Under the pieces are notes generated by a model. It saw nothing but the letters and a program-made list of their open reading frames with translations. It did no database searches and was not told the origin of the DNA. Both the position numbers and the translations under genes were made by a program. From contig JAENYG010000002.1 of the NCBI GenBank assembly GCA_016841875.1, positions 116,559 to 171,233 on the forward strand: a stretch of 54,675 nt of DNA. The letters are read 5' to 3'. This stretch comes from Syntrophomonas sp. (GTDB lineage Bacteria; Bacillota; Syntrophomonadia; Syntrophomonadales; Syntrophomonadaceae). Each line of letters begins with the position of its first letter. Positions within the stretch are counted from its first letter, which is position 1. This document shows, one piece after another, positions 17,098-54,675 of this stretch.

Positions 17098-17173
17098 AGT
17101 GACACAGGGGGACGTTTTTGTTGTGTCATTTATTGGCAAAAATGACACAACAAAAACGTCCCCCTGTGTCACT
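17098..17173. repeat. Family A palindrome, complete two-arm unit
   Basis: Arms 17098-17130 and 17141-17173 around TATTGGCAAA. The right arm supplies the TGA stop of the minus-strand zinc-ribbon gene that ends at 17169. The core is GGGGGACG, with one more G than most copies, as in the unit at 12176. Confidence 0.9.
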
Positions 17174-17663
17174 CTAGGTGGCTGCCACATTCGTTGCAGA
17201 ATTTAGCCTGGGGATTTTTAATAGCAGAACCGCAGTTTTTACAAGCCCTGGCAGCCGGGGCATTTATTTTATTCCCGCAGTAAGGGCAAAATTTGTCCAT
17301 AGAGGAGATTTTTTCTCCACATTGCTGACAGGTAGTCTCATCTAACGGCTGGATTACCGGAGAGCCGTCTTCCGTGGACTTGTCTTCGCGCTCCGTTATT
17401 ACAATGTCCTCCCCGGAGAGGGAAAATATAACCTGGCCGGGTTTATATCCGGAATCTGACCATTGGTCATGAATACGATCATAATAGAGCCAGGTTCCAT
17501 TTACCGGCTCCAGCATCAGCTGGTAAGGACCGAGTTCCATGTACCAATCCTCGGCATCTCCGTAAAACTCCTGCATAGTTTTAGCTGGGCCGGCTTCTTT
17601 GTTCCGGAAACTCTCCCAGCGTTCTTCGATTTGCACTTGTTGGTGATTTACATGCTCTCCCAT
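17169..17663 (-). CDS. Zinc-ribbon protein of unknown function
   Basis: 164 residues. The N-terminal two thirds is a soluble domain I do not recognise (FYGDAEDWYMELGPYQLML, WLYYDRIHDQWSDSGYKPGQVIFSL). The C-terminus has two zinc ribbons: CQQCGEKISSMDKFCPYCG and CKNCGSAIKNPQAKFCNECG. Its ATG lies inside the last codons of the 1045-residue gene (16-bp overlap), so the two are translationally coupled and likely act together; both carry zinc ribbons. Its stop TGA belongs to the family A repeat. Shine-Dalgarno AGGAGGGA. Confidence 0.8.
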   Translation of the reverse strand: MGEHVNHQQVQIEERWESFRNKEAGPAKTMQEFYGDAEDWYMELGPYQLMLEPVNGTWLYYDRIHDQWSDSGYKPGQVIFSLSGEDIVITEREDKSTEDGSPVIQPLDETTCQQCGEKISSMDKFCPYCGNKINAPAARACKNCGSAIKNPQAKFCNECGSHLE

Positions 17664-20600
17664 GGTTCCCTCCTAAAACTCTTAACTGTCGCCTGGGCCT
17701 GCATATAGCCCTCATAGCCTGGTTCACCGGGATTCTTGGGTTTGTAAGCCCCGAGAAATCTCTGAATGCCTTTTTCAACATCACCGTTACAAAATTGAAT
17801 ATCTTCAGATAGAGTTGTCTCCCATACCCCTCGATCTACTACTGAATTTTTCCCCCAGGTTGGTTCTCCCAGTTCCTTATCCCATTTGGCCAGCCATTCT
17901 TTTTCGGTTATGATCTGTGGTGCTTTTTCATTTTGTACCCCATCCCAGAAATCCAGAACCAGGCGTTCCCCGTCCGGGGTGATTACCAGGGTTGCGGCAT
18001 GGTTTACCCAGGGGTTGCGCTGCAGTGCTATCCGCCCTGTAACGGTGCCATCACCGAATATATCTTTAGCAGAATTCTCCATCCACTCCTGTCCCCACCG
18101 GGCATATTCACCGCACTGTCCACCGGTCATACCTCTCACCCAGTCTTCGATCCATCCGGTGGGAAAATTATTCCAGCCTTTACGTATAGTGTCAAAATCT
18201 TTTATGCCTCCGAACGTCAATCCAGTAGTCAACCCATCCTGAATAGGTCCGCTGGTATGGGCATTTTTAACATAGTAGCCTTCTTTGATTTTTTGCTGGA
18301 TAATTTCATCCATTTTGATTCTCAGGTTATCCACCCGGGTATGTCCGTTAAAATCTAGCCCATCCTTGTTATATCCATCCTTATTGAAGCCACTTTCATT
18401 ATAACCATTTTTATCAAATCCATTTTTATCAAACCCGCGGCTGTCATATCCTTCCCGGTCCCGACCAAATTGGTCGAAGCCCTTTTTGTCATAACCGTCT
18501 TTGTTATAACCGTCCATATTATAGCCATCACGGTCATAATTATCCTTGTCATATCCATACCGGTCGTAGCCATCTTTGTCATAACCATTCTCGTTTATAC
18601 CATCTTTATCAAACCCATTACGGTCATAGCCGCTGTTGTCAAACCCATTCTTATCATAACCATCTTTATCGCGTCCGTAAGCATCAAAACCATCTCGATC
18701 AAAACCATTTTTGTCATAGCCATTTTTGTCATAGCCATCTTTGTCAAAGCCTTCATGGTTAAATCCATCTTTATCATAACCATTACGATCGTAGCCATTT
18801 TTATCAAAGCCATCCTGGTCATAGCCATCCCGATGCAGACCGTTCCGGTCATAACCATCCTGATCATAACCTTCTTTATCAAAACCGTCCCGGTCAAGAC
18901 CCAGCCAGTTGTAACCATCTTTATTGTAACCGTCTCTATCATAGCCTTCAGCATTATAACCATCTCTGCCATATCCCTCACGATTATAACCATTGCTATC
19001 GAATCCATCCCGGTCATAACCAAATTGATCCCGGCCATTTTTATCAAACCCGCTGCGATCATACCCCTCCCGGTTATAACCGCTGCGGTCGTATCCATCT
19101 CTATCATAGCCGTTGGTATCGAAACCATCCTTATCATAACCGCCCTGGTGCTGTCCATTGCGGTCATAACCGTCTCTATTGTATCCATCGCGGTTATAGC
19201 CGTATTCATCATATCCTGATTTATCAAAGCCGAGTTGATCATAACCCCGGCGGTCAAAACCGTTCCTGTCAAAACCATTCCGGTCATAGCCTTCAGAATC
19301 ATAACCGTCTTTATCATATCCTTCCTGGTCGTTGCCGGTTTCATCCTCCATCGGTGCAGGCTCCTGTCCATCCTCTTGGCCTGGCTCCTGGTAGTCATCA
19401 TCGGTAGTATATGGCGGAGCCTGCTCAACTCCAGCCGTATCGATTGAAGGAGGCTGATAATCGATATTTTCACCTGGCGGAGTTTGAGCCTGGCTGTCTT
19501 TGCTGATGTCATCACCGCTAAAATCATCTAAATTCATATCGTCCAGATCCGTATCATACCAATCGATATCATCATCGTCAAAGTCAAAGTCAAACATGTC
19601 TGGATCAATAGCATTTAAAGCGCTTCCTACACTCGGACCTATACTCATGCCGATGGAAGGCAAGACTCCCTGGATGGCAGCCTGGTAAGAGCCCTGGCTT
19701 CCCCACCAGTTAGCCCATCCACCAACTTCTGCTTCCCCGCCATCATCTGCCAGCAGTATATGCCAATGCATTATATTATTTGGATCAAAGAATAAATATA
19801 AGGTGGCTATAAATAATATGAATAACGGCATCACCGGACTGCCTCCCCGATCTCGTCCGGAAAACATAAGAGCCGCAGCTACTCCCAGCAGAACCAGGCC
19901 AAAAAATGAATCCCAGAACAGGAATACTCCCAGCACAAAACCGCAGGCGGCTCCCGCCATATTAAGATAGGCTTCTATCCGGGCATGGCTTTTTATCTGT
20001 TTGTTCTTTATCCCCAGCACCTGCCAGATGCTGTTCCAAGTGCTTCTGATCAGCAGCGACAGCAGACGGCCAACTCCGGTGGCAAAGAGTGCTGAAACGC
20101 CGATGGCTAAGACCAGGTTAGTGGTACCGCTCATAAGGCCTGCGATCAGTAAGGCAAAGCCTGCGCCGGTTAATAGGGCTGCCGGGGCTACCTTGCTGTT
20201 TGAAGTCACATAGGCCGCAATATCTTTGGGGGTGATAATAATGCTTTTTATTAATTCGCCGGCACCTTTTCGTTTGATCAAATAGATAGCAGAGAAGAGG
20301 AGGGTACTGAAAAGGGTCCAGAGCACAGTGGCCGAAATCATGTTACCTTTGGAACCCAGTAACTGCTGGCCGAGCCAGGTATCCGGGCTGAATCCCTGAT
20401 TGATGCCCACCAGGAGATAGGTATGTACGGCGAGGGAAATGAGGAAAAATAATATAGTCAGAGGCAGGCTTTTTAAAAGTGCCTGACCGGTCTTTAAGCC
20501 AATCTGCTTTAAAAGACTGCTCCAGGTGAGTTTGATTTTAGGGCCGGTGTCTGGAGGCGGCATATCATATCCCGTCCCAGCAGGTCCGGGAGGATAATAA

Positions 20601-20785
20601 AAGGGCTCTGTGTTATTGGGCAGGGAAGATAACTGTTGACCGCAGTTCCCGCAAAAAGGTGCTCCGGGAGTTATTTCGGTTCCGCATAATGGACATCGCA
20701 AAGCTGCATTTATAGTTTGGCTGCCGCATTCCGGGCAGAAAATCGCATCATCTGGTAATCTATTTCCACAGTTTTGGCAAAACAT
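17648..20785 (-). CDS. Zinc-ribbon, multi-pass membrane, pentapeptide-repeat protein with Cys-His-Asp domain
   Basis: 1045 residues, a composition I do not know as a named family. Order: two zinc ribbons (Cys3/6/17/20 and 31/34/45/48); proline-rich linker; about six membrane segments (105-335); an Asp-rich stretch (about 395-430); a linker rich in Pro, Gln and Asp; then about 66 tandem pentapeptides of the form G-Y/F-D-K/R-D/N (488-817). A C-terminal globular domain follows, with Cys891 (GGQCGEYARWG), His929 (WVNHAATLV) and Asp945 (LVLDFWDG), spaced like a transglutaminase/papain-type triad. The repeat Asp residues could bind calcium, which is inference. Operon with the overlapping zinc-ribbon gene. 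Confidence 0.85.
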   Translation of the reverse strand: MFCQNCGNRLPDDAIFCPECGSQTINAALRCPLCGTEITPGAPFCGNCGQQLSSLPNNTEPFYYPPGPAGTGYDMPPPDTGPKIKLTWSSLLKQIGLKTGQALLKSLPLTILFFLISLAVHTYLLVGINQGFSPDTWLGQQLLGSKGNMISATVLWTLFSTLLFSAIYLIKRKGAGELIKSIIITPKDIAAYVTSNSKVAPAALLTGAGFALLIAGLMSGTTNLVLAIGVSALFATGVGRLLSLLIRSTWNSIWQVLGIKNKQIKSHARIEAYLNMAGAACGFVLGVFLFWDSFFGLVLLGVAAALMFSGRDRGGSPVMPLFILFIATLYLFFDPNNIMHWHILLADDGGEAEVGGWANWWGSQGSYQAAIQGVLPSIGMSIGPSVGSALNAIDPDMFDFDFDDDDIDWYDTDLDDMNLDDFSGDDISKDSQAQTPPGENIDYQPPSIDTAGVEQAPPYTTDDDYQEPGQEDGQEPAPMEDETGNDQEGYDKDGYDSEGYDRNGFDRNGFDRRGYDQLGFDKSGYDEYGYNRDGYNRDGYDRNGQHQGGYDKDGFDTNGYDRDGYDRSGYNREGYDRSGFDKNGRDQFGYDRDGFDSNGYNREGYGRDGYNAEGYDRDGYNKDGYNWLGLDRDGFDKEGYDQDGYDRNGLHRDGYDQDGFDKNGYDRNGYDKDGFNHEGFDKDGYDKNGYDKNGFDRDGFDAYGRDKDGYDKNGFDNSGYDRNGFDKDGINENGYDKDGYDRYGYDKDNYDRDGYNMDGYNKDGYDKKGFDQFGRDREGYDSRGFDKNGFDKNGYNESGFNKDGYNKDGLDFNGHTRVDNLRIKMDEIIQQKIKEGYYVKNAHTSGPIQDGLTTGLTFGGIKDFDTIRKGWNNFPTGWIEDWVRGMTGGQCGEYARWGQEWMENSAKDIFGDGTVTGRIALQRNPWVNHAATLVITPDGERLVLDFWDGVQNEKAPQIITEKEWLAKWDKELGEPTWGKNSVVDRGVWETTLSEDIQFCNGDVEKGIQRFLGAYKPKNPGEPGYEGYMQAQATVKSFRREPWESM
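18335..19324 (-). repeat. 15-bp coding tandem repeat (about 66 units)
   Basis: Tandem 15-bp units coding the pentapeptide G-[YF]-[DN]-x-[DNE], about 990 bp without a break in phase. Units diverge at codon third positions and at the variable residues, so the array is old and held by selection at protein level rather than freshly expanded. A few units are off-consensus (NGQHQ, NGRDQ, FGRDR, DNYDR). Confidence 0.92.
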
Positions 20786-24441: not shown

Positions 24442-26481
24442 ATGGGGTACAATCATAAGACTGCCTGTCTGTTAATCACATTTTTTATCTTTTTTACTCT
24501 TTTTCCTGCTCAGGTAGGGGCGATCAATCCGCAGCCGGAGCCTCCAGGCACTTCAACCATCGAGGTCTTGATAGATGGTTTAGAACTGGAAATGGATACC
24601 CAGCCGATTATTGAAAACAATAGAACGCTAGTACCGCTCCGAGCTATCTTTGAGGCTCTGGGAGCCGAAGTGGAATGGAACCCGGAGGCCCGGAGCATTG
24701 TAGCCATCAAGGGCGAGATGTCAGTCAAAGTCTGGATAGGCAGCCTGACTGCTTATAAGAATGGAGATGTGGTGACTCTGGATGTGGCGCCCAAAATATC
24801 GAATGATCGCACTTTGGTACCGCTGCGTTTTGTCAGCGAAGCTCTGGGAGCTGAAGTCGGATGGGATGGCATAAAAAGACAGGTGAGTATCTCTACCTCA
24901 GGAGATGAGAGCAGCCTGCCATTTGATACGTCCCTTATATCCAAATTGAAGATGAATATTCCGGAAAATGAATTTGATAGCCGGTTGATTGCTCAATATG
25001 CTTTGGAAGCCAAACCGTTTGATCCGGGTCTGATCCAAAATATCCATAGCCCATTTGTGTTAGATTATTCAGATTATGTAACCCTGACCGGCAACCAGGA
25101 CGGATGGGGTGGGTGTATAGGGCGTGCTATCATTCACTGTACCAATATTATCCGGGAGATGGAACAACCATATACTCCAGATTTGTCGCTCTGGCACGTT
25201 TTGTACCGGCAGTACGAGTTGGCTGGCAGCGGAGAACCGGATACTAAACTGGTACTGGAGAACTACGGGATGTGTTCCGAAGCATCTCTGCCTACTGATT
25301 ATGATGATGCTACCCTGATTAAGGATAGTAATGGCAAGGTGACGGGAGTAGATTTTAACACCATGTCTGCTCCAACCAGCCTGGATAATCTGGAAGCACT
25401 GCAGCTTTACCGGCTCAAAACCTACAGTGATCCTTATAAAGACTTGTCCGTCGATGAGGTCAAGGATATGCTGTACCAGTACGGACCGCTGGTAGCTGCA
25501 GGACCGCTCCATATAATACAGGGGCCCAATCCCGCTGAAGGTCATTGTATAAGTATTGTGGGTTATGATGATGTGCAAAAACTTTTCAAATGCTTGAACA
25601 GCTGGGGAGATTATTGGAACGGGAATGGTTATTTTTATTTGCCCTATGATGATTTTTCTTACAACATTGAATGGGTTCGCTATATCGAGATAATGCCGAC
25701 CGATAGATCGCTTACCCAATATGCCTATACTGCTCGCATTCACGTAGATATGAACGGCATTAGCCGGAATAAACTTACTGTGAAGGTGGGAGTGGAAGGC
25801 GAACAGCCTCTAGTAGTATGGGATACCCCCAATGAGCAAAACTGTGTTGATAACAGCCGTACTTTGTGTATCGATGTACCTTTGCCATCATATGCTGCCC
25901 AGAACTGGCCGCCGGCAGACAATGCCCAATGGTACGTGGAAATAACCAATCACGCCAGCGGCAGTTATCATGATGCGGTAGTTAAAGAGATAACTCTGGC
26001 CCGCCTGTATAAAAACAGTGATGGATCTTATGCTTCTGAAACCTTTCAACCGAAAACTATCGGGACCAGGGTTGAGGATGGTGAAACGGTGAAAATTAAC
26101 ATTCCCGCTAAATATTATGGATATACGGTGAGCCTGGATAACGATGACACGACAGTCCTCAAGGGAAATTCGATTACCCTGGAAGGAAGCCTGAATATCA
26201 CCACCCAGTACGATACTTCTGATAATGGTACTGATTATGTACCAGTACCAGGTATGGAACTAACCATCTATAGATCACGTGATGGTATAAATGAAATCGT
26301 GGGTACGACTACTACCGGGCAGGATGGGAGCTATAGCTATACTTTTACACCTGATAAAAGCGGACAGTACCGGGTTACATGGAAGGGGAAAAATGGAATT
26401 GTAATTACCTCCAGCGATTATGTGACCATTGAGGTGAATTCACTGCAGATAATTCCGCCGATCCATTTTGATCTTATATAG
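24442..26481 (+). CDS. Secreted papain-family (C1) protease with copper-amine-oxidase-N stalk domain
   Basis: 679 residues. Signal peptide (ACLLITFFIFFTLFPAQVGA); stalk domain with its two typical halves (NNRTLVPLRAIFEALGAEVEW about 59-79; NDRTLVPLRFVSEALGAEVGW about 121-141). A C1A peptidase domain follows: Gln219, Cys225 (GWGGCIGRA), His368 (EGHCISIVGYDD) and Asn386 (LNSWGDYWNGNGYF). A C-terminal beta-sandwich ends it (TTTTGQDGSYSYTFTPDKSGQYRVTW). All catalytic residues are present. Substrate unknown; probably an exported or surface-bound protease. Stand-alone gene with Shine-Dalgarno GGAAGGGGAGGAG. Confidence 0.9.
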   Translation: MGYNHKTACLLITFFIFFTLFPAQVGAINPQPEPPGTSTIEVLIDGLELEMDTQPIIENNRTLVPLRAIFEALGAEVEWNPEARSIVAIKGEMSVKVWIGSLTAYKNGDVVTLDVAPKISNDRTLVPLRFVSEALGAEVGWDGIKRQVSISTSGDESSLPFDTSLISKLKMNIPENEFDSRLIAQYALEAKPFDPGLIQNIHSPFVLDYSDYVTLTGNQDGWGGCIGRAIIHCTNIIREMEQPYTPDLSLWHVLYRQYELAGSGEPDTKLVLENYGMCSEASLPTDYDDATLIKDSNGKVTGVDFNTMSAPTSLDNLEALQLYRLKTYSDPYKDLSVDEVKDMLYQYGPLVAAGPLHIIQGPNPAEGHCISIVGYDDVQKLFKCLNSWGDYWNGNGYFYLPYDDFSYNIEWVRYIEIMPTDRSLTQYAYTARIHVDMNGISRNKLTVKVGVEGEQPLVVWDTPNEQNCVDNSRTLCIDVPLPSYAAQNWPPADNAQWYVEITNHASGSYHDAVVKEITLARLYKNSDGSYASETFQPKTIGTRVEDGETVKINIPAKYYGYTVSLDNDDTTVLKGNSITLEGSLNITTQYDTSDNGTDYVPVPGMELTIYRSRDGINEIVGTTTTGQDGSYSYTFTPDKSGQYRVTWKGKNGIVITSSDYVTIEVNSLQIIPPIHFDLI

Positions 26482-31900: not shown

Positions 31901-31968
31901 ATGACACAAGGGGACGTTTTTGTTGTGTCCTTTTAAAATGACACAACAAAAACGTCCCCTTGTGTCAT
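31901..31968. repeat. Family A palindrome upstream of RAYT 1
   Basis: Arms 31901-31930 and 31938-31968 with a short TTTTAAA loop; the left arm ends GTGTCC instead of GTGTCA. It lies 80 bp before the RAYT gene. With the arm at 32818 it brackets the transposase gene. Confidence 0.9.
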
Positions 31969-32048
31969 TTATTAACCCCCCTCCAGGCAGATTACTTTAT
32001 CTAGTAAAAATGGTAAAATATACACATGAAGTAATCGAAAAGAGGGAA

Positions 32049-32819
32049 ATGATGCCACGTCAATCTAGACAGATCAGCAAGATAGGTATATATCATGTGC
32101 TTGTAAGAGGGATTAACCGGGGAGCCTTATTCCATGATGATGAGGATCGTCAAAGGTATTTATATACTTTGACAAAATTTATCAAGGACAATGAAGTCCT
32201 GGGATATTGTCTGATGGACAATCATGTTCATCTTCTGATCAAAGAAGGTTTAAATGGGATATCTAATCTTATGCACCGCCTGGGAGCAAGCTATGCGTAT
32301 TTTTTCAACAATAAATATGAACGGGTCGGCCATGTTTTCCAAAATCGCTTCAAAAGTGAAAACGTTGAAGATGATTCTTATTTAAAGGTCGTTATTAGAT
32401 ATATTCATCAAAATCCTATAAAGGCAGGAATGGTAAATAAGGCCGAATCATATCGCTGGAGCAGTTGCCAGGCTTATTATGGTGGTAAAGACTATTTCCC
32501 GGGATTAACAAGTACGGACTTGATTCTGAGCTTGTTTTCTGAAAAAAAGGAACATGCAATTATGATATTCCGCCAATTCACTGAAGTTGAGACTTCGGAT
32601 AGGTGCCTGGAAGACATAGAGATAACAGCTTTGACAGAGGTCCAGGCTCATCAGGCGATAGAAAAAGTGTTGGATAATAAATCAGTTATTATATTAAACG
32701 AACTGAGTAAGGCAGACCGGGACCTAGTGGTGCGTGAGCTAAAGGCGATTGAGGGATTAAGTATCCGGCAAATATCCCGCCTAACTGGCGTGAGTTTTAA
32801 TATTGTGAAAAGAGCTTAA
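32049..32819 (+). CDS. REP-associated tyrosine transposase (RAYT 1)
   Basis: 256 residues, Y1/HUH transposase of the REP-associated type. It opens MMPRQSRQISKIGIYHVLVRGINRG, and has the HUH motif DNHVHLL (about 57-63), AYFFNNKYERVGHVFQNRFKS and the Tyr-containing helix YLKVVIRYIHQNPIKAGMV, plus WSS. It ends in a helix-turn-helix-like tail (LSIRQISRLTGVSFNIVKR). RAYTs cut single-stranded DNA at REP hairpins and are thought to spread them. Start set at 32049 behind GAGGG; a longer frame runs through the repeat. The stop TAA directly abuts a family A arm. Confidence 0.92.
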   Translation: MMPRQSRQISKIGIYHVLVRGINRGALFHDDEDRQRYLYTLTKFIKDNEVLGYCLMDNHVHLLIKEGLNGISNLMHRLGASYAYFFNNKYERVGHVFQNRFKSENVEDDSYLKVVIRYIHQNPIKAGMVNKAESYRWSSCQAYYGGKDYFPGLTSTDLILSLFSEKKEHAIMIFRQFTEVETSDRCLEDIEITALTEVQAHQAIEKVLDNKSVIILNELSKADRDLVVRELKAIEGLSIRQISRLTGVSFNIVKRA

Positions 32820-49624: not shown

Positions 49625-50449
49625 ATGGCCAGGCAACCACGTAAAATTAGCAATACAGGTGTATACCATGTAATGATACGAGGAAATGAGAAGCGTAATA
49701 TATTTTATGATGATGAAGACCGTATGCATTTTCTTAATATAGTTCAGACCAAGGTGAGATTGACCAAAACCAAACTCTATGCATATTGCCTTATGGATAA
49801 TCACGTTCACTTCCTTATGGGCGAAGGCAATGAGTCTATGGCAGTTTTTATGAAAAGAATTAATGTGAGTTATGCCTATTATTTTAACAAAAAGTACGAT
49901 AGGATTGGTCACCTATTCCAGGATCGCTTTAGAAGTGAAGTTATAGAAGATGACCGCTACTTATTAGAGGCCATGCGGTATATTCACAACAATCCAGTCA
50001 AAGCATCAATAGTAAACAAAACTGAAGATTATAAATGGAGTAGTTACCATTATTTTATAGTTGACCTGGATAGCAGTATTGAAAAATATTTTTTATTGAA
50101 TATGTTTTCTGATAATATTGAGCGAGCATTAGAGCTATTCAAGGAATTTCATTTAAAAAATGATGAAAGGGAGTTTCTGAATTGCGATACTCGGAATAAA
50201 GAAGAGAAGAGAATACGCCAGGTAAAAAAAGCAAAAGAAATTATTGATAATGTCTTAAATCAAAATAATTTTACTGATGAAAACTACTTAGACCATAAGG
50301 ATATGAGAAATAAGATTATATTATCCCTTAAGCAACAAAGGGGGCTGTCCATTCGGCAGATAGCAGATGTATTAAACATTAACCGGGGGGTAGTTCAAAT
50401 AGTAATAACGAGTGACAAAAAGAACCATCTTCGAGGACACGAACAATGA
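49625..50449 (+). CDS. REP-associated tyrosine transposase (RAYT 2)
   Basis: 274 residues. MARQPRKISNTGVYHVMIRGNEKRNIFYDDED, HUH motif DNHVHFLM, YYFNKKYDRIGHLFQDRFRSE and Tyr helix YLLEAMRYIHNNPVKASIV, WSSYH. C-terminal helix-turn-helix-like tail (LSIRQIADVLNINRGVVQIV). It is a homologue of RAYT 1 but clearly diverged, and it is flanked by family B rather than family A repeats. Start behind AAAGGAGAA. Confidence 0.92.
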   Translation: MARQPRKISNTGVYHVMIRGNEKRNIFYDDEDRMHFLNIVQTKVRLTKTKLYAYCLMDNHVHFLMGEGNESMAVFMKRINVSYAYYFNKKYDRIGHLFQDRFRSEVIEDDRYLLEAMRYIHNNPVKASIVNKTEDYKWSSYHYFIVDLDSSIEKYFLLNMFSDNIERALELFKEFHLKNDEREFLNCDTRNKEEKRIRQVKKAKEIIDNVLNQNNFTDENYLDHKDMRNKIILSLKQQRGLSIRQIADVLNINRGVVQIVITSDKKNHLRGHEQ

Positions 50450-54049: not shown

Positions 54050-54675
54050 TTACACTATTTCGATACTATCAATAAACTGCAAAGCTACAAATGTAGTAGA
54101 GCTGATGCGTCCGGAAGAGAGAATGTTTTTTAGGACGACTACTCCATCTGTCAGTCCTGCAATTGTGCGGGCGGGGGTTATGGTGTGCCCCCCGGCTGTG
54201 ATAACAACTCCTGCTTGATTGCCGGTGGAAATAATTTCTTCCAAAACCTTTTTAACATGATATTCACCTTCAGTCAAAACTGCATGTGGATGAGTAGATG
54301 ATAAATCTAAAAGTTCCATGTCCGCAATATCTCTATTGATTTCAATGAATGCAAGTCTTGCTGGGTTCAGATACGATGTTCTGCCATCAGCTTTTAAAAC
54401 CATAACTCCACTTCCAACCTGATCTGCCTGCACCTTCATTAACGCTGCTCCATAGGTTTCACCCTTGGTGGTAAGGCCGAGCAGTACGGCAGGATAGTTA
54501 TAGTCATTTATCAGCTGTTTAGCAACTTGAAGCAAGTGTTTTTGACCGGAGCTGGATATTTCCGAGCCAGAAACGGACAACCCCGGAGGCCCCTGAGGCC
54601 CGGCTTCACCCTGAGGTCCGGGCACACCCTGAGGCCCGGCTTCACCCTGAGGTCCGGGCACACCCTGAGGCCCGG
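54050..54675 (-). CDS. Collagen-like protein, 5' end beyond the window
   Basis: At least 208 residues visible, open to the window edge. The known part begins with Gly-x-y repeats (GPQGEAGPQGVP as a 36-bp DNA unit repeated just over twice, ending GPPGLSV). A non-collagen domain follows (SGQKHLLQVAKQLINDYNYPAVLLGLTTKGE, ATHPHAVLTEGEYHVKKVLEEIIS, VVVLKNILSSGRISSTTFVALQFIDSIEIV). Such proteins form spore or cell-surface filaments. The C-terminal domain is not a C1q/BclA type that I recognise. Confidence 0.8.
   Translation of the reverse strand, partial: GPQGVPGPQGEAGPQGVPGPQGEAGPQGPPGLSVSGSEISSSGQKHLLQVAKQLINDYNYPAVLLGLTTKGETYGAALMKVQADQVGSGVMVLKADGRTSYLNPARLAFIEINRDIADMELLDLSSTHPHAVLTEGEYHVKKVLEEIISTGNQAGVVITAGGHTITPARTIAGLTDGVVVLKNILSSGRISSTTFVALQFIDSIEIV

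What the first reader, a model, noticed from the sequence alone, without database searches (positions are those of the whole stretch)
17169..20785. Unfamiliar membrane protein with about 66 G-Y-D pentapeptides and a Cys-His-Asp domain, coupled to a second zinc-ribbon gene
Zinc ribbons, six membrane segments, an Asp-rich hinge, a 330-residue array and a transglutaminase/papain-like domain in one chain make an unusual architecture. The D-x-D/N-G-Y/F register offers regular acidic ligands, and the aromatic residue every five positions could build a solenoid or fibre. The overlap with the next gene implies a two-protein device, possibly a surface-anchored cross-linker or protease on a calcium-sensitive stalk.
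Basis: partly seen in the sequence, partly recalled or inferred. Interest (0 to 1): 0.78.

Follow-up and report, generated by a model that had tools for sequence, protein, structure and literature searches.

The report
Membrane-anchored enzyme on pentapeptide stalk
A syntrophic bacterium encodes a membrane protein that probably holds a papain-like enzyme outside the cell at the end of a long, regular five-residue repeat, always next to its own small partner gene; it looks like a modular surface effector built on a repeat and an anchor not described before, but its activity is untested.

Summary
Gene 17648-20785 (-) encodes 1,045 residues: two zinc ribbons, seven (not six) hydrophobic segments, an acidic linker, 67 pentapeptides (66 with Gly in register) and a C-terminal domain whose Cys891, His929 and Asp945 are invariant in all five sequences found. 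The zinc-ribbon gene 17169-17663 overlaps it by 16 nt. Positive-inside charge puts the array and enzyme outside the cell. No Pfam family matches the array or the C-terminal domain. A low-confidence AlphaFold2 model of the domain has papain-like strand order, and its nearest solved structures are Gln-deamidase-like papain folds; triad spacing (38/16) matches SseI (38/15). The partner's N-domain occurs only beside this enzyme domain (5 of 5 loci; 3 of 348 genomes). A distant relative keeps anchor and array but has another C-terminus and downstream gene. Giant secreted proteins in several genera carry the same kind of array. Best reading: a surface-displayed modular effector, polymorphic-toxin-like, with a papain-like (deamidase, transglutaminase or protease) tip and a cognate partner that may be its immunity protein. 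Toxicity, immunity, catalysis, calcium binding and the array's fold are not shown; AF2's solenoid for the array is of a kind known to be unreliable.

The parts
17648..20785 (-). main gene, 1,045 aa (P0001)
   Evidence: ORF; orthologue 86% identical in the C-terminal part with conserved synteny in L009; dN/dS 0.12 overall
20627..20782 (-). two N-terminal zinc ribbons (residues 2-53)
   Evidence: Pfam PF13240 E 3.4e-13, PF12773 E 3.6e-10
19781..20467 (-). seven-segment membrane module (residues 107-335); N-in, C-out by positive-inside rule
   Evidence: hydropathy; K/R counts in inside loops 7, 6, 5, 2 and in outside loops 1, 0, 0, 0; conserved across 7 sequences
19337..19750 (-). acidic linker (residues 346-483, 36 D/E, 1 K/R), begins near LLA|DDGG, a possible signal-peptidase-like site
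   Evidence: the LA-DDGG (once LA-HDGG) motif is conserved in A3; cleavage is inference
18332..19336 (-). GYDxx pentapeptide array, 67 units (residues 484-818)
   Evidence: no Pfam family at E<=10
17651..18340 (-). C-terminal Cys-His-Asp domain (residues 816-1045)
   Evidence: alignment A2; AF2 model and fold comparisons
18113..18115 (-). Cys891 codon, predicted nucleophile (GGQCGE)
   Evidence: invariant in 5 sequences
17999..18001 (-). His929 codon (NHAATLVI)
   Evidence: invariant in 5 sequences
17951..17953 (-). Asp945 codon (LDFWDG)
   Evidence: invariant in 5 sequences
17169..17663 (-). partner gene, 164 aa (P0002): unique 95-aa N-domain (17379-17663) and C-terminal zinc ribbons
   Evidence: N-domain only next to the CHD domain in 348 genomes
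17648..17663 (-). 16-nt overlap of the two genes, candidate translational coupling

Best explanation
The main protein is a membrane-anchored, modular surface effector. Shown by sequence: cytosol-type zinc ribbons, a seven-segment membrane module, an acidic linker, a long pentapeptide array and a C-terminal domain with an invariant C-H-D triad. Inferred: the membrane module leaves the C-terminus outside; the array is a stalk or spacer that carries the tip away from the membrane; the tip is a papain-superfamily acyl-transfer or hydrolysis enzyme, most like protein-glutamine deamidases, that modifies a protein on or in a neighbouring cell; possible cleavage after LLA could release it. The overlapping gene makes a cytosolic zinc-ribbon protein dedicated to this tip, most simply an immunity or inhibitor protein. 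In plan it works like the anchor, filament and toxin-tip proteins of polymorphic toxin systems, with a new anchor and a new filament. Rough odds: papain-like fold 0.85, outside location 0.85, dedicated partner 0.85, antagonistic effector with immunity 0.4-0.5.
For: Topology: every K/R-rich loop falls on one side, and the C-terminal side (residues 334-420) has 19 D/E and no K/R. Enzyme: C-H-D invariant, spacing 38/16 against SseI 38/15 and PMT 40/15; the model puts Cys at the start of a helix followed by the His and Asp strands; best structural rows are SseI (Z 7.5 and 7.3), then, with some unrelated rows between, protein-glutaminase, NTAQ1, tegument-type DUBs, vasohibin and LapG at Z 3-4.5. 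Modularity: G043 keeps the anchor (E 5e-184) and array but has a different C-terminus and a different downstream gene. Pairing: partner N-domain in 5 of 5 CHD loci and nowhere else in 348 genomes; both absent from G015 at this site, with a 38-residue remnant left. Tail exchange: in the paralogue, G015 and G016 share a tail unlike G000's although the rest of the gene groups G015 with G000, and G016 keeps an orphan fragment of the old tail. The same kind of array sits in signal-peptide-bearing giants of 1,800-2,200 aa whose C-terminus differs in one genome, with an extra gene behind it.
Against: No toxicity or immunity tested. The C-terminal model has mean pLDDT 52, built from two sequences. Only two kinds of C-terminus are seen on this anchor (the third relative runs off its contig). 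In the paralogue the partner did not change with the exchanged tail. The whole gene is under purifying selection (dN/dS 0.12), without the fast evolution often seen in toxin tips. Anchor clade and C-terminus type change together, so the partner could belong to either. No secretion or delivery route is known; there is no WXG100 protein in the genome.
Confidence: 0.5

Rival explanations
1. Non-antagonistic surface enzyme: a cross-linking or processing enzyme (transglutaminase, deamidase or protease) on a stalk that modifies the cell's own envelope or matrix, the partner being a regulator or assembly factor. This is.
For: Papain-like C-H-D domain; purifying selection everywhere; both paralogues shared within the genus.
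Against: A partner that is always co-inherited and seems cytosolic (no signal peptide or membrane segment seen) is less expected; the C-terminus varies on the same anchor; tail exchange with an orphan remnant.
Confidence: 0.28
2. Signalling device: zinc ribbons and P0002 act in the cytosol, the array senses something outside, and the enzyme domain processes a ligand or the protein itself.
For: Zinc ribbons in both proteins; PrsW membrane peptidases fused to zinc ribbons are read as signalling peptidases in the literature (PMC3482391).
Against: No kinase, sigma or anti-sigma gene seen adjacent; P0002 follows the enzyme domain and is absent beside the G043 anchor.
Confidence: 0.14
3. The array and enzyme face the cytosol (six crossings) and the pair works inside the cell, for example as an enzyme and its cytosolic adaptor.
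Against: Seven peaks and a strong positive-inside pattern; similar arrays sit in proteins with signal peptides.
Confidence: 0.06

Closest known systems
Polymorphic toxin systems (PMC3482391), especially PrsW-anchored and RHS-filament toxins and surface-anchored contact-dependent toxins
   Same: N-terminal multi-pass membrane module, long repeat region, variable C-terminal enzymatic domain at the extreme C-terminus, small dedicated gene directly downstream; papain-like folds are known toxin tips there
   Different: Anchor has no PrsW match at E<=5; the repeat is a GYDxx pentapeptide, and the word 'pentapeptide' is absent from the held text of that survey; no known Imm family matches the partner; toxicity untested
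SseI / PMT C3 deamidase-like papain folds and protein-glutaminase
   Same: C-H-D order and spacing; best structural neighbours of the model (Z 7.5 and 4.5)
   Different: No sequence-profile match (0 Pfam families at E<=10); low-confidence model; different organism and architecture, unknown substrate
Pentapeptide repeat proteins (PF00805)
   Same: Five-residue period with an aromatic or aliphatic centre, dozens of contiguous units
   Different: Position two before the centre is mostly D/N/E, not A/C/S/V/T/L/I; position one before is Gly; no Pfam match
DotG/IcmE and Decapeptide (PF25296) repeats
   Same: Gly-aromatic steps every five or ten residues; weak matches (NCBIfam DotG E 0.0014; PF25296 24.3 bits for a giant relative)
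   Different: Below curated cut-offs; a compositional resemblance only

Membership tests
papain-like cysteine-enzyme superfamily | Cys, His, Asp in that order, conserved | tested here: met
   invariant in 5 of 5 sequences
papain-like cysteine-enzyme superfamily | Cys at the start of a helix packed on an antiparallel sheet carrying His and Asp | tested here: inconclusive
   AF2 topology fits but mean pLDDT 52, two sequences; neighbours mostly papain-like but Z<8
SseI/PMT-type deamidases (Tox-PLDMTX) | sequence-profile match | tested here: not met
   no Pfam family at E<=5 or E<=10 for the domain or any of its 5 aligned members
SseI/PMT-type deamidases (Tox-PLDMTX) | glutamine deamidase activity | not testable with these tools
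   needs an assay
polymorphic toxin systems | conserved N-terminal trafficking part with variable C-terminal domains | tested here: inconclusive
   two kinds of C-terminus on one anchor; a third is cut by a contig end
polymorphic toxin systems | cognate gene immediately downstream | tested here: met
   5 of 5 loci, nowhere else among 348 genomes; that it is immunity is not shown
polymorphic toxin systems | replacement of C-terminal tips with orphan remnants | tested here: inconclusive
   tail of about 60 residues exchanged and orphan old tail in G016, but not the whole domain
polymorphic toxin systems | toxicity of the C-terminal domain and neutralisation by the partner | not testable with these tools
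   needs expression
PrsW-dependent toxins | PrsW peptidase domain | tested here: not met
   no PrsW match at E<=5 in the full-length scan
type VII (WXG/LXG) effectors | WXG100 partner in the genome | tested here: not met
   no WXG100 match in the genome while B. subtilis control rang; EspG hint in only 1 of 7 accessory proteins, E 0.06
pentapeptide repeat proteins PF00805 | consensus [ACSVTLI][DNSKEIR][LF].. | tested here: not met
   position two before the centre is mostly D/N/E (consensus from PMC8145042); no Pfam hit
pentapeptide repeat proteins PF00805 | right-handed quadrilateral beta-helix | tested here: inconclusive
   AF2 pLDDT 84 in one model, no fold match; AF2 bias known

The most novel reading that the evidence does not exclude
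An undescribed class of modular surface effectors in Syntrophomonadaceae and other members of the phylum: zinc-ribbon seven-segment anchors (or secreted giants) display interchangeable enzymatic tips on a GYDxx pentapeptide filament, here a new papain-like family with its own zinc-ribbon immunity protein.
Probability: 0.35. Interest if true: 0.66.

Novelty: new variant of a known kind. Interest (0 to 1): 0.48.

Why it matters
If right, it adds a new anchor and a new filament to the ways bacteria hold effector domains at the surface, in obligately cooperative (syntrophic) bacteria where antagonism is little studied. The repeat is regular and acidic, with one aromatic per five residues, and makes a clean test case for whether such arrays fold or only space. 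The enzyme and partner are small and can be expressed alone, so the effector reading is directly testable.

Tried and rejected
Sequence families: Pfam, NCBIfam, PHROGs and PADLOC gave nothing significant beyond zinc ribbons; PDB profile search of the C-domain gave only a chance mannanase. Relatives of the C-domain in phages, plasmids and viral contigs: none. Array hits in phages and plasmids are degenerate look-alikes (pentapeptide proteins, Gordonia, PelG tails), not shown homologous. T7SS link through an EspG-like accessory: one weak hit, no WXG100, dropped. Homology of the accessory genes of the two protein families outside their zinc ribbon: E 0.0035 but probability 9%, inconclusive. Higher-order periodicity of the array (4 units per coil): no clear signal in the window array. 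Fold search of the array: none in PDB, one 24-residue match in BFVD; a missing match is not evidence. A Reg_prop gene and ABC-transporter neighbourhood of the distant relatives was seen but is not shared by the window locus. Structure jobs could use only window and L009 rows, so the models rest on two sequences.
Full report
Check of the observation. The window lies in a genome of 3.97 Mb; the one named relative found is a Syntrophomonas MAG. The 1,045-aa gene (17648-20785, -) and the 164-aa gene (17169-17663, -) are real ORFs with ribosome-binding sites, overlapping by 16 nt. The array has 67 units, 66 with Gly in register (shuffles: mean 17.5, maximum 27). Consensus G-[YF]-[DN]-[RK]-[DNE]. 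It is not a young DNA expansion: neighbouring units are no more alike than distant ones, Gly uses four codons, and between the two orthologues dS is about 0.8 with dN/dS 0.09 and no indel from about the third unit on. So the protein pattern, even its odd units (GQHQG, NYDRD, GIN.N), is under purifying selection.

Topology. Hydropathy finds seven segments in the window protein. Loops alternate sharply: K/R 7, 6, 5 and 2 on the side of the N-terminus; 1, 0, 0 and 0 on the other, where the C-terminal stretch is strongly acidic. This puts zinc ribbons in and array plus enzyme out. Paralogues and distant relatives are less clean in the same scan (segments merge or split), so the count is best read from the window protein and its charges. 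The giants with the same kind of array begin with signal peptides, which agrees. A motif LA-DDGG (once LA-HDGG) follows the last segment in all relatives and could be a cleavage site; this is inference.

C-terminal domain. No family in Pfam matches at E<=10 for any of five members. Five copies exist, in three genomes of one genus among 348 sampled across the phylum. GGQCGE, NH.ATLVI and DFWDG are invariant. The AF2 model (two sequences only) is poor, mean pLDDT 52, pTM 0.49, but shows Cys at the start of a helix, then strands with His and Asp. Foldseek ranks SseI first (E 0.033, probability 0.95), then tegument-type DUBs, LapG and phytochelatin synthase; VIA-align gives SseI Z 7.5 and 7.3, then protein-glutaminase, NTAQ1 and vasohibin at about 4, with a few unrelated rows among them. 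Z below 8 can be a common arrangement, but that most top rows share the catalytic fold expected from the motifs is informative. SseI has Cys178/His216/Asp231 and PMT Cys1165/His1205/Asp1220 (PMC3498931): spacings 38/15 and 40/15, here 38/16. I therefore read the tip as a papain-like enzyme, with a deamidase-like activity as first guess; transglutaminase or protease stays open.

Array fold. The best AF2 model has pLDDT 84 with one- or two-residue bridges at the Tyr-Asp positions, but the other models are 71 to 47, pTM is 0.37, and no PDB fold matches. AF2 gives confident but unrealistic solenoids for repeats (PMC11795689). The array fails the pentapeptide-repeat consensus. Its fold and any calcium binding stay open.

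Partner. P0002 has a 95-aa N-domain and C-terminal zinc ribbons. The N-domain is found five times in 348 genomes, each time directly behind a CHD domain (loci). In G015 the site of the window pair holds only a remnant of the first 38 residues, and no second partner copy. The two genes thus come and go together.

Modularity. The membrane module is found only in Syntrophomonadaceae-type genomes G000, G015, G016, G043 and G011, all of one family. G043 keeps module and array (21 units), then a short common helix (GKT....I..L..KM, compare GHTR..NL..KMDEI in the window) and a different C-terminus of about 190 aa, followed by a different 352-aa zinc-ribbon gene. In G000 a degenerate third module on contig C34 lies by a relative of that 352-aa gene (28% over 240 aa, E 4e-23). 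In the paralogous locus, the last about 60 residues of G015 and G016 agree with each other (77% nt) better than with G000 (as low as 57%), while the rest of the gene groups G000 with G015; G016 still carries a fragment of the G000-type tail behind its stop. This resembles how tips are exchanged in CDI/Rhs systems (general knowledge), though here only a tail moved and the partner did not.

Wider family. Arrays of 74-101 units sit in secreted proteins of 1,800-2,200 aa in several genera of the phylum, with a conserved set of small membrane and zinc-ribbon genes; in G025 the C-terminus is different and an extra 271-aa gene follows. This supports, without proving, a common use of the array as a carrier of C-terminal domains. 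The arrays are low-complexity, so similarity between the two protein families need not mean common descent.

Mechanism. Most likely: anchored or released surface effector, array as stalk, papain-like tip acting on a target protein, cytosolic zinc-ribbon partner as immunity or inhibitor. The plan matches anchor-filament-tip toxins (PMC3482391), such as PrsW proteins with or without RHS filaments, but neither PrsW nor T7SS markers are present. A non-antagonistic envelope enzyme is the main rival. The evidence does not decide between them; expression with and without P0002 would.

Verdict. Real, well conserved, unusual; new in its anchor, repeat and enzyme family, known in its general plan.

Noticed in passing
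window 24294-50473: GGGGACGGTTC occurs 12 times (0.02 expected), often as inverted pairs, near two RAYT-like transposase genes at 31920-32819 and 49625-50449: REP-type mobile repeats.
   Followed up: partly
window 24442-26481 (+): 679-aa secreted protein with copper-amine-oxidase-N-like repeats and a papain C1-like peptidase (HCISIVGYDD, NSWGDYWNG), a few kb from the finding.
   Followed up: no
window 54591-54675: 36-nt tandem repeat at the window edge that may encode collagen-like Gly-x-y repeats.
   Followed up: no
L012:3493-5597 (own genome, contig C34): Degenerate third copy of the zinc-ribbon/membrane module with stops, next to a zinc-ribbon gene related to the one behind the G043 homologue.
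   Followed up: partly
L107:2662-6650 (-): Giant array protein of G025 with a C-terminus unlike its relatives and an extra 271-aa gene behind it, a candidate effector-immunity swap.
   Followed up: partly
L113:1450-3561 and L114:1492-3810: Cetobacterium and Fusobacterium PelG proteins carry a degenerate GYD-like repeat tail after a lipobox-like segment.
   Followed up: no
L110:4857-11785: The giant array gene of G016 is interrupted downstream of its array by a run of unread bases and a shifted frame, so its C-terminus reads as a separate ORF.
   Followed up: no
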